A stretch of 64,000 bases of DNA from Desulfoarculaceae bacterium. GTDB lineage: Bacteria > Desulfobacterota > Desulfobulbia > Desulfobulbales > Desulfocapsaceae. The stretch lies in the NCBI GenBank assembly GCA_019429465.1, contig JAHYIV010000015.1, forward strand, positions 1 through 64,000, given 5' to 3'. A program made the position numbers and the translations under genes. A model generated the notes under the pieces. It worked only from the letters and a program-made list of their open reading frames with translations, was not told where the DNA came from and did not search any database. Positions 30,053 to 48,221 of the stretch are shown piece by piece (the first letter of the stretch is position 1; every line of letters begins with the position of its first letter).

Positions 30053-30160
30053 ACAAGGGGGCTCATCTTCACCTGTCAGGCATAACAGTGGACCTTCTTG
30101 GTTTGCATGGCTCAGGCAGAAAATAATTCGTTTCCGTTTTTCTTTGCAGAACAAAAAAAC

Positions 30161-30211
30161 GTAATAGGCAGAATCAGTCTATCACAAACCTTTGCTGATT
30201 CTGCCTATTAC
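30161..30211. terminator. 17-bp perfect inverted repeat after argG
   Basis: GTAATAGGCAGAATCAG (30161-30177) and its exact complement (30195-30211) flank a 17-base loop. An A-run precedes it, so it would work best as a terminator for leftward transcription or as a boundary of the accessory insert. The same stretch separates argG from the two small UGA-containing genes. Confidence 0.6.
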
Positions 30212-30237
30212 ACTGATAGAAGCCAAAAAATATATCT

Positions 30238-30648
30238 ATGCTCAATAAATCGAATGTCTATATCATATTGTTTGTATGTTTTCTTTTTGTAGCTTATCTG
30301 CTGAGTTTCAATGCTCATGCAAAGGAGGTTGGCGAAGTGATAAGCGTAAAAGTCCTATCCATAAAAGGTTGTGAAGCTACTCCACCGACTATCGATCTAG
30401 TCAAATCTGTAGCCCAAGAATTGAAAATCAAAATCAAACTTACACATGTAGTCGTTGAAACTTCCGAAATTGCGACAAAAGAACGTTTTATTGGAAGCCC
30501 AACTGTCCAGATCAACGGTTTAGACATAGATCCAAGTGCAAGGGAAATTCAACAATTTGGAGTAACTTGACGTAGGTACGGGGCATCGGTGGTGCCTCCA
30601 AAAGAAATGGTAGCCAGGGCATTTGATGAAGCTATAAAAAATCAATAG
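30238..30648 (+). CDS. Thioredoxin-like protein with in-frame UGA, putative selenoprotein (SaoT-like)
   Basis: 136 codons with TGA at codon 111 (30568-30570). An N-terminal membrane segment or signal (IILFVCFLFVAYLLSFNAHA) is followed by a small thioredoxin-like fold: VKVLSIKGCEATPPTIDLV, then RFIGSPTVQINGLDI. In this family a conserved Cys stands in a C-R-x-Y motif near the C-terminus. Here it reads U-R-R-Y, and the frame continues with family-like V-P-P-K-E-M-V-A-R-A-F. Seventeen bases after the TGA is a GGU loop closed by GGCATC/GGTGCC, as expected for a bacterial SECIS. SaoT-type (seleno)proteins are associated with organometal handling. The naming is inference; a plain nonsense mutation is the alternative. 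Confidence 0.75.
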
Positions 30649-30657
30649 GGGCATAAA

Positions 30658-30882
30658 GTGACACAAGAAAAAATCTGTTATTGCTTCAACTACACAGCAG
30701 AAGATATTAGAAATGACTTTCAAAAAAACGGGGAGTCCACAATTATGGTCCGCATCATGAACGAAAAGAAAAACGGAAAATGTAATTGTGAGTCTACTAA
30801 CCCCAAGGGCAGGTGATGTCTCGCAGATGTTCGCCAGGTGGTGAATGAGGCACAAGGAATTAAAGAACTGAAAAGCTTCTAA
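30658..30882 (+). CDS. Small Cys-rich metallochaperone-like protein with in-frame UGA, putative selenoprotein
   Basis: A 74-codon gene from GTG 30658 (AGGGG upstream) with TGA at codon 53 (30814-30816). The translation E-K-I-C-Y-C-F-N-Y-T-A-E-D-I, then G-K-C-N-C-E-S-T-N-P-K-G-R-U-C-L-A-D-V-R-Q-V-V matches the small (2Fe-2S)/metal-binding chaperone family, which has adjacent cysteines (C-C) after N-P-K-G. The TGA replaces the first of them. A 6-bp hairpin TTCGCC-AGGT-GGTGAA begins 13 bases after the TGA, close to the bacterial SECIS pattern. It starts 9 bp after the preceding gene, and its stop codon TAA lies inside the attC site. Both genes look like one cassette. Confidence 0.78.
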
Positions 30883-30967
30883 CAATGCTACTGCACCTGA
30901 CCGCGAGAACGGCGGCGGCGCTACGCGTCAAGTTTCTTGGCGCGGCAGGTGAGTAGCGGCGTTATGC
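30877..30967 (+). other. attC: Integron attC recombination site 1
   Basis: Outer core TTCTAAC at the left and GTTATGC at the right. Between them, GCTACT-(G)-CACCTG-(A)-CCGC pairs perfectly with GCGG-CAGGTG-AGTAGC, leaving two extrahelical bases on one strand. A 3-nt unpaired spacer (AAT/GGC) separates this from the AAC/GTT ends, and the central loop is variable. This is the folded architecture that integron integrases recognise. The stop codon of the preceding gene is the TAA of the core, as in typical gene cassettes. Confidence 0.88.
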
Positions 30968-31000
30968 ATTAAGAAAAAAACTTGCCTCACCCTGTCGCAG

Positions 31001-31024
31001 AGTTTATAGTCTAGAGTATAAACT
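31001..31024. promoter_or_regulatory. Palindromic operator upstream of the vapBC-type module
   Basis: AGTTTATAG-TCTAGA-GTATAAACT is a 24-bp near-perfect palindrome with one mismatched pair. It overlaps a promoter-like TATAGT/TATAAA stretch and ends 25 bases before the antitoxin start. Toxin-antitoxin operons are usually repressed by their own antitoxin at such sites. Confidence 0.7.
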
Positions 31025-31048
31025 TAACCAGACGTGAGAGGTGACACA

Positions 31049-31294
31049 ATGCAAGCTACAGCTAAAGACCTTCGATTTCACGCCAAAGAATTATTGAACA
31101 CTGTGAGCAGGGGCGAAGAAGTAGTTATCACATACCGAGGAAAGCCTTGTGCCAAGCTTGTCCCCATAGAAGAAGAAAAAAGTGCCTTTCCCGAAACCAA
31201 CGAATTGTTTGGCATTTGGAAGGACAACGCTCAAACAGAAGATGTAGAAAACTACATTAAAACAATTAGAAAAGGGCGTTTCGATGCTCATTGA
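31049..31294 (+). CDS. Phd/YefM-type antitoxin
   Basis: 81 residues beginning MQATAKDLRFHAKELLNTVSRGEEVVITYRGKPCAKLVP, the DNA-binding Phd/YefM fold, with an acidic C-terminal tail that should wrap the toxin. GAGAGGTG precedes the ATG at 31049. The frame open from 31034 adds only MRGDT. It overlaps the toxin gene by 11 bases. It probably represses its own promoter through the palindrome at 31001-31024. Confidence 0.9.
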   Translation: MQATAKDLRFHAKELLNTVSRGEEVVITYRGKPCAKLVPIEEEKSAFPETNELFGIWKDNAQTEDVENYIKTIRKGRFDAH

Positions 31295-31661
31295 TACCGA
31301 TGTGCTCATCTGGTACATGCGAGGTAACACAAAGGCATTAGATGAATTAGAAAAGCATAAAAACTTTTCTATATCCGTCGTTACCTACATGGAGCTAGTC
31401 CAGGGAATGAGAAACAATAAAGAATTAACAGCACTCCGCAAGGCCTTAAAGAGCTGGAACTGCAATATTATCTACATAAGTGAAGAAATCTCAAGCAAAG
31501 CCATGTTCTATATTGAACAGCACTACCTGAGCCACTCCATGCAAATTGCCGACGCATTAATAGGTGCCACGGCAGCATCTTACGGAATGCCATTATTAAC
31601 TGGCAACGACAAACACTACAAAGTCGTCAAAGAAATCGCCTTAAAGAAATTCCGGCCATAA
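31284..31661 (+). CDS. vapC: PIN-domain ribonuclease toxin (VapC family)
   Basis: 125 residues with the PIN acidic residues: IDTDVLIWYMRG at the start, VVTYMELVQGM in the middle, and IADALIGATAASYGMPLLTGNDKHY at the end. VapC toxins cleave RNA, often initiator tRNA. It overlaps the antitoxin upstream. Base composition is AT-richer than the surrounding arginine genes, which fits acquisition as part of the cassette cluster. Confidence 0.92.
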   Translation: MLIDTDVLIWYMRGNTKALDELEKHKNFSISVVTYMELVQGMRNNKELTALRKALKSWNCNIIYISEEISSKAMFYIEQHYLSHSMQIADALIGATAASYGMPLLTGNDKHYKVVKEIALKKFRP

Positions 31662-31868
31662 ATTCAAAACACTGTAATAGCTATTGGTCTTATTACTTTT
31701 ATCTCTGGATTAGTGATGTTACTAATTGCAGCTTTTAAAAAATACTGAATAGGCTATTATAATAGCAACCAAAAATTGGACACATATATTTTCTGGTAGG
31801 TCGGCGCATAAGATACGGTGTGCGCCTGCTTGACACAAAAAAAATCTCGTTGAGAGGAGGGATTTAAA
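31662..31868 (+). other. Gene-free spacer with a membrane-helix remnant
   Basis: One frame ends V-I-A-I-G-L-I-T-F-I-S-G-L-V-M-L-L-I-A-A-F-K-K-Y-stop near 31746, which looks like the last transmembrane segment of a lost gene. A GGCGCA/TGTGCGCC hairpin near 31803-31828 and a TTGACA box just after it may be the promoter of the next module. No attC is seen here. Confidence 0.4.
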
Positions 31869-32078
31869 GTGCTTCGTGAATTTAATGTCGTTATAGAAAA
31901 AGATGAGGATGGTTATTTTGTTGCCTCTGTTCCCGCTCTTCGTGGATGTCACACCCAGGCTAAGTCTTTAGATACTTTAATAAAAAGAACAAGAGAGGCT
32001 ATTGCACTTTGTCTTGAAGTGGAAGACCCGGTATCAAATGAGTTTGTTGGCGTCCAACGTATAGCCGTTAACTGCTAA
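31869..32078 (+). CDS. hicB: HicB-like antitoxin (short form)
   Basis: 69 residues with the partial RNase-H-like HicB fold: FNVVIEKDEDGYFVASVPALRGCHTQAKSLDTLIKRTREAIALCLE. The start is GTG 31869, with a strong GAGGAGGG 8 bases upstream. It lacks a separate C-terminal DNA-binding domain. It precedes the toxin, the less common gene order. Confidence 0.9.
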   Translation: MLREFNVVIEKDEDGYFVASVPALRGCHTQAKSLDTLIKRTREAIALCLEVEDPVSNEFVGVQRIAVNC

Positions 32079-32081
32079 CAC

Positions 32082-32306
32082 ATGAGCACCTTTCCATCCC
32101 TCACTGGCAGTCGGCTTATACGTGCTTTGAGCAAGGTCGGGTTTGTTGACGTCCGCATCAAAGGCAGTCATCATTTTCTCCAACATCCCGATGGCAGATG
32201 TACTGTTGTTCCTGTTCATCGTGGCGAGCATATTGGCAGAGGACTTATTGCTCAAATCCTGCGAGATTGTGAAATGACATCCAACGAACTTCAAAAAAAT
32301 CTATGA
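32082..32306 (+). CDS. hicA: HicA-like mRNA interferase toxin
   Basis: 74 residues with the dsRNA-binding-like HicA fold and the catalytic His in IKGSHHFLQHPDGR, followed by VVPVHRGEHIGRGLIAQILRD. It lies 3 bp after hicB. It is followed closely by attC site 2. Confidence 0.92.
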   Translation: MSTFPSLTGSRLIRALSKVGFVDVRIKGSHHFLQHPDGRCTVVPVHRGEHIGRGLIAQILRDCEMTSNELQKNL

Positions 32307-32339
32307 TCCACCTAAGGTTTTGAATTGACAGCAAAAATC

Positions 32340-32429
32340 GCCGAACAAGGCAATGCACTCGGACGGCGGGAACCTGCTGCTTTTTTATTAAAGTTCAGTG
32401 TCCGCCGCCGGTGATTTTGGTCGTTAACG
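32340..32429 (+). other. attC: Integron attC recombination site 2
   Basis: AAC at 32344 and GTT at 32423 bound an imperfect palindrome in which CAC-(T)-CGG-(A)-CGGCGG pairs with CCGCCG-CCG-GTG. This leaves two extrahelical bases in the same geometry as site 1. The outer cores are degenerate (GCCGAAC, GTTAACG). The internal spacer is longer and unpaired. Confidence 0.75.
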
Positions 32430-32498
32430 CAATAAACTACACCCGCTGCAAAAGCGGCGGCAATGATATCATGTAAGAAATTGAGATGGAGGCGCCAG

Positions 32499-32705
32499 AT
32501 GAACATTTCTGAATTAAAGAAAATGAGCACTTCAGAACGATTGCAAGCCATGGAGGCACTTTGGGATAGCCTTTTATATGAAAATGATGCAGTCGAAACT
32601 CCTGAGTGGCATGAAAAAATACTTCAGGAAAGAAAAGAGAAAATTGCAAGCGGGTGCGCAACATTCATCTCACTCGCTGAGCTCAAAAAAATTCATCACC
32701 AATGA
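32499..32705 (+). CDS. Addiction-module antitoxin (TIGR02574-like)
   Basis: 68 residues, NISELKKMSTSERLQAMEALWDSLL, then a helix with PEWHEKILQERKEKI and a short tail. This is the pattern of the small RelB/ParD-like addiction-module component that pairs with RelE/ParE toxins. GATGGAGG lies upstream of the ATG at 32499. Its stop codon overlaps the toxin ATG by 4 bases. Confidence 0.88.
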   Translation: MNISELKKMSTSERLQAMEALWDSLLYENDAVETPEWHEKILQERKEKIASGCATFISLAELKKIHHQ

Positions 32706-33010
32706 AAATAAATGATGTTTTCATATTGGATGAAGCCGTAGACGATTTGAATGAAGGCAAAGCATTTTACGATCTTCAGACAACAGGGGTTGGTGATTAT
32801 TTCTGGGACTGTTTAATCTCAGATATAGAATCCCTTATTATATATGCTGGCATTCACAGTAAAAAACTTGGCCTGTTTCAAATGTTTGCCAAGCGATTTC
32901 CCTATACCGTTTACTACGAACTCGTTGAAAACATTGCGTATGTTGTTGCTGTTTTGCCTATGCGCAGAAATCCATCATGGATTACAAGAAAAATCAAGGA
33001 AAGGTGCTAA
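32702..33010 (+). CDS. RelE/ParE-superfamily toxin
   Basis: 102 residues with the RelE/ParE layout: EAVDDLNEGKAFYDLQTTGVGDYFWDCL, central FAKRFPYTVYYELVENIAYVVAVLPMRRNPSWI and a basic C-terminus. It may cleave mRNA on the ribosome or poison gyrase; the branch cannot be told by eye. Its stop codon lies within the half attC that follows. Confidence 0.9.
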   Translation: MKINDVFILDEAVDDLNEGKAFYDLQTTGVGDYFWDCLISDIESLIIYAGIHSKKLGLFQMFAKRFPYTVYYELVENIAYVVAVLPMRRNPSWITRKIKERC

Positions 33011-33040
33011 GCGGGTCACCTGACCGCCGGGAGCGGCTGA
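33006..33040 (+). other. Truncated attC site 3 (left half)
   Basis: GCTAAGCGGGTCACCTGACCGC resembles the left half of an attC. It shares CACCTGACCGC with site 1 and contains the toxin stop codon. No complementary right half follows before argH, so the array appears cut here. The rest of 33041-33179 shows no gene. Confidence 0.55.
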
Positions 33041-33179
33041 TTTTCAAGCCCACGTTCAGTGTAGGAATTAGGGACAGAGGCAGACCCCGTTTTACGTTCC
33101 AAGAGACATCTTTAAGTTTTACAGGAAAAATGATAAACATCATCAGTGTTGTCAATAAATGAGTAATCAGGAAAAAAAC

Positions 33180-43073: not shown

Positions 43074-43227
43074 GTAACTATCCAGCTTAATGCCGGGAAA
43101 ATGTCAAAACACATGTCACGTAACTATTCAGCAGTGCCTCATATGCAAGAAAGAGGCCTGCGAAGTGTACTGATTCGTACATGAGCAGACCGATGACGAA
43201 GCAGATGAGGTGCTGCTGGATAGTTAC
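43074..43227 (+). mobile_element. MITE-B copy 2 (IS66-type ends)
   Basis: 154 bp, nearly identical to the copy at 38005, with the same 13-bp ends. It is flanked by the 8-bp duplication ATAAATTT (43066-43073, 43228-43235). It lies 15 bp upstream of tRNA-Leu, so it has probably displaced or replaced part of that promoter. Confidence 0.94.
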
Positions 43228-43241
43228 ATAAATTTTTTATT

Positions 43242-47168: not shown

Positions 47169-48221
47169 ATGATAAAGCTGACAAGTACAGTTAAAGCTGC
47201 TGGTTGAGCGGCTAAGCTGGGCCCAGGGGACCTGGGTCGGATACTTTGCGGGATAACCCTGCCCAGGGATCCGAATCTGATTGTGGGCGCTGAAACCGGC
47301 GATGATGCCGGGGTCTACCGTCTCAATGACGAGACAGCCCTGATCCAGACTTTGGATTTCTTCACCCCCATTGTTGACGATCCCTTCAGTTTTGGCCAGA
47401 TCGCCGCGGCCAATGCCCTGAGTGATGTCTATGCCATGGGCGGCAGGCCGCTCCTGGCCATGAATATCCTGGCCTGTCCGGTGAAGACCATGGATATCTC
47501 GGTCTTCCGGGAGGTGATCCGCGGTGGCCTGGACAAGGTGCAGGAGGCGGGCGCTCTGCTGGTGGGAGGGCATTCTATTGAAGATGCAGAGCTGAAATAT
47601 GGCCTCTCGATCACGGGTGTGGTGCGTCCCGATCAGGTCCTGCTCAATGCCGGGGCCCGCCCCGGCGACCGGCTGATCCTGACCAAACCCCTGGGTCTTG
47701 GGATCCTGTCGACCGCCATCAAGGGGAATCTGGCGGGCCCGGAGGTGGAGCCCCGTATTGTCGAGGTGATGGTGACCCTGAACCGGCTGGCTTCCGTGAT
47801 CATGCAGGCGGTCCGGGGCCGTGGCGGAGAGGTGCATGCCTGCACCGATATTACCGGTTTCGGGTTGCTGGGGCATCTCTCCGAGATGCTGCTGGCCTCG
47901 GGTGTGGCCGCCAGGATCGTCGGCGAACAGGTGCCGGTGCTGGCCGGGGTCAGGGACTTTGTTGATATGGGGATCATCCCGGAAGGCGCGCATGTCAACA
48001 GGAAGCATTATGGTCCGGCGCTTAAGGGCAGGCGGCCTGAACAGGATGCACTCGAGCTGATCCTGGCAGATCCGCAGACCTCCGGCGGCCTGCTGATTGC
48101 CGCCAGCCCAGATACTGCTGCCGCTATCCTTCAGGAGATGCGGGTGCAGGGATATCCCCTGGCCTGCGCCGAGATCGGTGAGATTGTCGCCGGAGCTCCC
48201 GGCCGGATCGAGCTCATTTGA
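47169..48221 (+). CDS. selD: Selenophosphate synthase, itself a selenoprotein (UGA at codon 13)
   Basis: Makes selenophosphate, the selenium donor for selenocysteine. From ATG 47169 (GGGAGGTGATGG upstream) the frame reads K-L-T-S-T-V-K-A-A-G-U-A-A-K-L-G-P-G-D-L, where TGA (47205-47207) stands at the catalytic Cys/Sec position of SelD. It then continues into VGAETGDDAGVY, TLDFFTPIVDDPFSFGQIAAANALSDVYAMGG, GGHSIEDAELKYGLSITG and DPQTSGGLLIA. 350 residues. A GGCCCAG/CTGGGTC hairpin starting about 10 bases after the TGA can serve as SECIS. Calling the ATG-less frame from 47283 would lose the active site. Confidence 0.95.

What the first reader, a model, noticed from the sequence alone, without database searches (positions are those of the whole stretch)
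30238..30882. Two adjacent small selenoprotein genes in a cassette-like context
Both genes carry one in-frame TGA at the place of a conserved Cys (C-R-x-Y in the thioredoxin-like protein, C-C after N-P-K-G in the Cys-rich protein). Both resume family-like sequence after it and have a GGU-loop hairpin about 17-20 bases downstream. The window also encodes SelD with UGA in its active site, so the organism should decode UGA. Conventional calling truncates the first and misses the second. Selenoproteins ending at an attC site would be a new kind of integron cargo.
Basis: partly seen in the sequence, partly recalled or inferred. Interest (0 to 1): 0.88.

Follow-up and report, generated by a model that had tools for sequence, protein, structure and literature searches.

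The report
Two selenoprotein genes before attC site
A Desulfobulbales-like bacterium carries two small selenium-protein genes, of families found in mercury and arsenic resistance operons, directly in front of a gene-cassette recombination site, which suggests that integrons can carry selenoprotein genes.

Summary
Both genes carry one in-frame TGA exactly where relatives have Sec or Cys. The genome encodes selA, selB, tRNA-Sec and a UGA-containing selD. SECIS-type hairpins follow both TGAs; such hairpins are enriched in both families, and in gene 2's family the hairpin covaries. Both proteins belong to listed selenoprotein families: DF (NF049942, 2025) and the CopZ-like [2Fe-2S] protein form 1 (GxUC). 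Sec insertion itself is not shown.

The cassette context also holds and is the new part. The pair lies in a 3.1-kb insertion between argG and argH, which are neighbours in eight relatives. The insertion holds two attC-like sites (30877-30967, 32340-32429) in one orientation, with the extrahelical-base layout of attC sites beside integron integrases of the same order; 690 kb of other loci gave no equally good hit. Gene 2's stop codon lies inside the R'' box. This is a small CALIN with toxin-antitoxin cargo. The same pair occurs in three other genomes without attC, once in a mer operon, so soft-metal handling is the likeliest role. I found no report of selenoprotein cassettes in a partial library. 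The left cassette boundary and present mobility are unresolved.

The parts
30238..30648 (+). ORF 1, DF family (seleno)protein, thioredoxin-like, N-terminal hydrophobic segment; Sec codon TGA 30568-30570
   Evidence: NF049942 105.2 bits over cut-off 70; TGA/Cys column invariant in 30 sequences; thioredoxin-like model, mean pLDDT 92.7
30580..30598 (+). SECIS-like hairpin of ORF 1, loop GGU at 30588-30590
30658..30882 (+). ORF 2, CopZ-like [2Fe-2S] selenoprotein form 1 (GxUC); Sec codon TGA 30814-30816
   Evidence: NF047645 partial match, E 7e-15, positions 85-137; 27 read-through relatives with the same motif
30828..30847 (+). SECIS-like hairpin of ORF 2, loop AGGU at 30836-30839
   Evidence: covariation in 26 sequences
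30877..30967 (+). attC 1; R'' TTCTAAC contains the ORF 2 stop codon, R' GTTATGC
   Evidence: scanner score 18.4, best in 64 kb; fold of bottom strand z -3.4, 0 of 200 shuffles as good
31034..31661 (+). Phd-family antitoxin and PIN-domain (VapC-like) toxin
31869..32306 (+). HicB-like antitoxin and HicA toxin
32340..32429 (+). attC 2; R'' GCCGAAC, R' GTTAACG
   Evidence: scanner score 15.1; bottom-strand fold weaker, 13 of 200 shuffles as good
32463..33010 (+). addiction-module antitoxin and weak ParE-like toxin
30053..33158 (.). insertion between argG and argH
   Evidence: argG and argH adjacent in eight relatives
30161..30211 (.). perfect 17-bp inverted repeat upstream of ORF 1, role unknown

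Best explanation
ORF 1 and ORF 2 form a two-gene unit whose UGAs are decoded as selenocysteine by the host's SelA/SelB/tRNA-Sec/SelD system, guided by SECIS hairpins just downstream of each UGA. The unit is an integron gene cassette: it ends in an attC, which an integron integrase would recombine as a folded bottom strand, and it was inserted with toxin-antitoxin cassettes between argG and argH, leaving a CALIN. ORF 1 is probably an exported thioredoxin-like protein whose Cys45 and Sec111 bind or reduce a soft metal(loid); ORF 2 is a small [2Fe-2S] protein whose Sec-Cys pair would take over, bind or release the metal. Shown: conserved TGA/Cys positions, SECIS-like hairpins, decoding genes, attC anatomy, insertion, recurrent gene pair. 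Inferred: Sec insertion in vivo, capture and mobility by IntI, export, and the metal function (mercury or arsenic class).
For: Families and aligned TGA; decoding genes; hairpins; two same-strand attC-like sites within the insertion, none as good in 690 kb of other loci; same layout in arrays beside integrases of the same order; insertion relative to eight relatives; ORF 2 stop inside R''. Pair with both genes in three other genomes, once as MerR-DF-CopZ-MerT-MerP; Cys forms in mer operons; Sec CopZ-like genes beside ArsP, LMWPc and TauE.
Against: No left attC or attI found, so the 5' edge of the cassette is undefined. The best integrase match of the genome is broken. attC 2 folds only moderately well. 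The scanner was relaxed after I had seen attC 2 by eye, and several integrase loci gave no hit with it. No other DF or CopZ locus examined has an attC. No MerT match in this genome, though that search's controls rang nowhere. Several DF genes have ordinary metabolic neighbours.
Confidence: 0.7

Rival explanations
1. The selenoprotein genes are real, but residents: attC-bearing toxin-antitoxin cassettes inserted just downstream of them, so the pair itself was never a cassette.
For: No left boundary is recognisable, and the same pair occurs elsewhere without attC.
Against: The R'' box overlaps the ORF 2 stop codon, so attC 1 sits where the attC of this gene's own cassette would be. No DF gene was found in the 16 congeners listed without a match, and argG-argH is closed in relatives, so the pair is itself an acquisition.
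Confidence: 0.18
2. Same selenoprotein cassette, but the proteins act in general thiol redox or Fe-S chemistry, not in metal handling.
For: Thioredoxin-like fold; several DF relatives sit beside ordinary metabolic genes; no MerT match here.
Against: Repeated placement of both families in mer or ars settings, including one operon holding both.
Confidence: 0.3
3. The TGAs are ordinary stop codons or sequencing errors and the genes are decayed.
For: The assembly is a fragmented draft of 72 contigs; no protein evidence exists.
Against: TGA at the identical codon in many independent genomes, intact frame after it, conserved hairpins and the full decoding machinery.
Confidence: 0.03
4. The attC-like sites are chance inverted repeats in an island brought in by other means.
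For: Scanner made here, not the curated attC model; attC 2 has a modest fold z-score.
Against: Two of two best hits in 64 kb fall in the 3.1-kb insertion, on one strand, each at the end of a gene set; none as good in 690 kb of other loci; shared extrahelical-base layout with integrase-linked arrays.
Confidence: 0.08

Closest known systems
Hypothetical protein DF, NF049942 (deep-Sep paper, PMC12013277)
   Same: ORF 1 is over the family cut-off and has Sec at the family position.
   Different: The paper found a Sec form in one species only, without TGA-containing homologues; here many genomes have it, and this copy lies before an attC.
(2Fe-2S)-binding protein, CopZ family form 1, GxUC (PMC13188914 Table 1)
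   Same: ORF 2 has G-R-U-C and the CxC...CxC...UC residues.
   Different: Stand-alone short form that matches only positions 85-137 of the 138-position CopZ profile NF047645; lies in a cassette beside DF.
CALIN elements (clusters of attC lacking an integrase; PMC9024848, PMC8618304)
   Same: Two attC-like sites, toxin-antitoxin cargo, no integrase beside them.
   Different: Cargo includes two genes that need UGA recoding.
Multi-selenoprotein operons such as SAO and Tso (PMC13188914)
   Same: Adjacent selenoprotein genes with a likely shared role.
   Different: Other protein families; the review does not describe them as integron cargo in the sections read.

Membership tests
DF family (NF049942) | Score over the curated cut-off and Sec/Cys at the conserved (U/C)RxY site | tested here: met
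   105.2 bits against 70; alignment
CopZ-like (2Fe-2S) selenoprotein form 1 | GxUC motif in a Fer2_BFD-like domain | tested here: met
   GRUC; relatives share the motif; Pfam Fer2_BFD only weak, E 0.0015, under its cut-off
CopZ_Nterm_CC (NF047645) | Whole-protein score over the curated cut-off of 100 bits | tested here: not met
   55.5 bits, C-terminal part of the profile only
Bacterial selenoprotein gene | Sec-decoding machinery in the genome | tested here: met
   selA, selB, tRNA-Sec, selD
Bacterial selenoprotein gene | SECIS hairpin shortly downstream of the UGA | tested here: met
   own pattern, not bSECISearch
Bacterial selenoprotein gene | Sec present in the protein | not testable with these tools
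   needs 75Se labelling or mass spectrometry
CALIN | At least two clustered attC sites and no integrase nearby (PMC9024848) | tested here: met
   two sites 1.4 kb apart; no integron-integrase match on the window's contig among those listed
Integron gene cassette | attC at the 3' end of the gene | tested here: met
   ORF 2 stop inside R'' of attC 1
Integron gene cassette | Defined 5' boundary at a recombination point | tested here: inconclusive
   none recognised in 30053-30237
Integron gene cassette | Recombination by an integron integrase | not testable with these tools
   needs a recombination assay

The most novel reading that the evidence does not exclude
Integrons capture and spread whole selenoprotein operons: a two-selenoprotein soft-metal cassette moves between Sec-decoding bacteria, so there is a mobile gene pool that works only in hosts that recode UGA and that standard annotation misses.
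Probability: 0.45. Interest if true: 0.75.

Novelty: new variant of a known kind. Interest (0 to 1): 0.6.

Why it matters
Standard gene calling cuts both genes at UGA, so selenoprotein cassettes would be missed in integron surveys. Such cargo would be useful only in hosts that decode Sec, a host-limited gene pool that can be looked for directly. The recurrent DF-CopZ pair, once inside a mer operon, also gives two uncharacterised selenoprotein families a testable role in soft-metal handling.

Tried and rejected
DNA searches with the attC region found nothing relevant in plasmids, E. coli genomes or this genome, not surprising since attC sites conserve structure more than sequence. Viral contigs gave no relative of ORF 2. 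Its background and positive controls were run afterwards with that final version. No attC of comparable score near DF or CopZ genes of other genomes. SECIS fold z-scores were uninformative and were replaced by a comparison with random TGAs. No sigma-70-like promoter upstream of ORF 1. PDB sequence search found nothing for ORF 1. Paper searches for selenoprotein cassettes gave nothing relevant; one relevant paper was not held.

Full report
Observation. Reading TGA as Sec gives a 136-aa frame at 30238-30648 and a 74-aa frame at 30658-30882, nine bases apart. Under table 11 both stop at the TGA. The first belongs to the DF family (NF049942, 105.2 bits, cut-off 70). The second matches the C-terminal part of the CopZ N-terminal-domain profile, below that profile's cut-off, and Fer2_BFD weakly.

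Is the TGA real? In 395 genomes of the phylum, the DF relatives that I read carry TGA or Cys at the (U/C)RxY site. In an alignment of 30 sequences C45 and position 111 are invariant Cys/Sec columns. Some relatives also have TGA at the first Cys (L035 and L037, L156), which suggests that the two positions work together. CopZ-like hits occur in 62 of 395 genomes, nearly all with a TGA; the 27 that I read through, this one included, share ICYCF...NPKGR-U-CL-DVR with small variations. Both are listed selenoprotein families: hypothetical protein DF, and CopZ family form 1, GxUC (PMC13188914). The DF paper (PMC12013277) found its Sec form in one species.

Decoding. selA, selB and tRNA-Sec are in the genome. 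selD with TGA in its GUAAK motif lies near 47205. SECIS-type hairpins by my own pattern follow the Sec TGA in 17 of 27 CopZ-like and 9 of 16 DF genes, against 5.5% of random TGAs of the same loci. Two of the 29 printed CopZ rows are regex matches at TAA codons and are not counted. On 26 CopZ-like sequences the hairpin is 89% paired and 4 of 7 pairs change on both sides; none of 500 shuffles reached this, and slid versions fell to 30-56% paired. The stretch is also coding and the sequences are related, so this is supportive, not proof.

Context. argG and argH are adjacent in eight relatives, with gaps of roughly 20 to 240 bases. Here 3.1 kb lie between them, holding the two genes, a Phd/PIN pair, HicBA and an antitoxin/ParE-like pair. 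A scanner for attC anatomy (RYYYAAC and GTTRRRY boxes, paired arms with extrahelical bases) scored 18.4 for 30877-30967 and 15.1 for 32340-32429, both on the + strand; one other place in the 64 kb, near a tRNA-Leu, reached 14. In 690 kb of other loci no hit reached 15. This scanner was relaxed after I had noticed attC 2 by eye, so its score for attC 2 is not a blind result; the controls were run afterwards.

Positive control. Integron-integrase matches over the cut-off occur in 133 of 243 genomes of the class. With the final scanner, DNA beside several of these integrases shows arrays. In L141 nine sites score higher on the expected strand, with patterns such as GGGT(C)AACCTG(A)CGGCGG and GCAT(C)AAC(G)CAG(A)CGGCGG, the layouts of window sites 1 and 2. 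Several other integrase loci gave no site, some of them because the contig ends there. The ORF 2 stop codon lies within TTCTAAC of attC 1. The bottom strand of attC 1 folds better than all 200 shuffles; attC 2 less so (13 of 200 as good). Two clustered attC without an integrase meet the published reporting rule for a CALIN. Off-target insertion by an IntI elsewhere in the genome is one published route to a CALIN, and cassettes with two ORFs are known. The best integrase match of this genome lies on another contig, in two pieces with a stop.

Function. DF and CopZ-like genes stand together in three other genomes of the order, both with TGA; in one of them the DF frame also has a frameshift. That one, L174, reads MerR, DF, CopZ-like, MerT and a MerP-like frame with GMTCDLU. 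Cys forms lie behind MerR and a MerT/HMA fusion, behind MerR and an alkylmercury-lyase gene on a plasmid, behind MerR-MerT-cation transporter, or inside a gene annotated merA. Sec CopZ-like genes neighbour ArsP, LMWPc and TauE genes. The DF model is a confident thioredoxin-like fold by secondary structure and Foldseek, with moderate TM-scores. I therefore favour soft-metal binding or reduction. Against a purely mercury role: ordinary neighbours of several DF genes and no MerT match here, in a search whose controls rang nowhere.

Open points. The left cassette boundary, present mobility, Sec insertion and the start codon of ORF 1 are not settled. An in-frame GTG at 30337, preceded by AAAGGAGGT at 30321-30329, could give a short form without the hydrophobic segment. 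Paper searches found no report of selenoproteins as integron cassettes, but the library is partial.

Noticed in passing
L174:1-2100, minus strand (G581:C18): A mer-type operon MerR-DF-CopZ-MerT-MerP-like with TGA at Sec positions in DF, CopZ and the MerP-like frame (GMTCDLU), near a TrbI-like conjugation gene: possibly three selenoproteins in one mercury operon.
   Followed up: partly
window 30321-30339: Strong Shine-Dalgarno AAAGGAGGT before an in-frame GTG at 30337 in ORF 1; starting there would remove the hydrophobic N-terminus, so two protein forms are conceivable.
   Followed up: partly
window 30161-30211: Perfect 17-bp inverted repeat (17-base spacer) upstream of ORF 1; operator, terminator or boundary relic not decided.
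   Followed up: no
G000:C65:111904-112128 (L092): Second Sec CopZ-like gene in this genome, upstream of a TauE/SafE-like gene, with an insertion inside the domain.
   Followed up: partly
G000:C21:73685-74640 (L048, L049): Integron-integrase match split over two frames with an internal TAA near a contig end; no attC found in 20 kb beside it.
   Followed up: partly
L035, L037, L156: DF relatives with two TGAs, at the first Cys and at the C-terminal Sec position.
   Followed up: no
L148, L150, L151, L155, L171: DF relatives whose N-terminal extensions end in lipobox-like segments, suggesting exported lipoprotein forms.
   Followed up: no
window 43118-43229: Third-best attC-like hit (score 14), just before tRNA-Leu; almost equally scored on both strands, without extrahelical bases, so probably another inverted repeat.
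   Followed up: no
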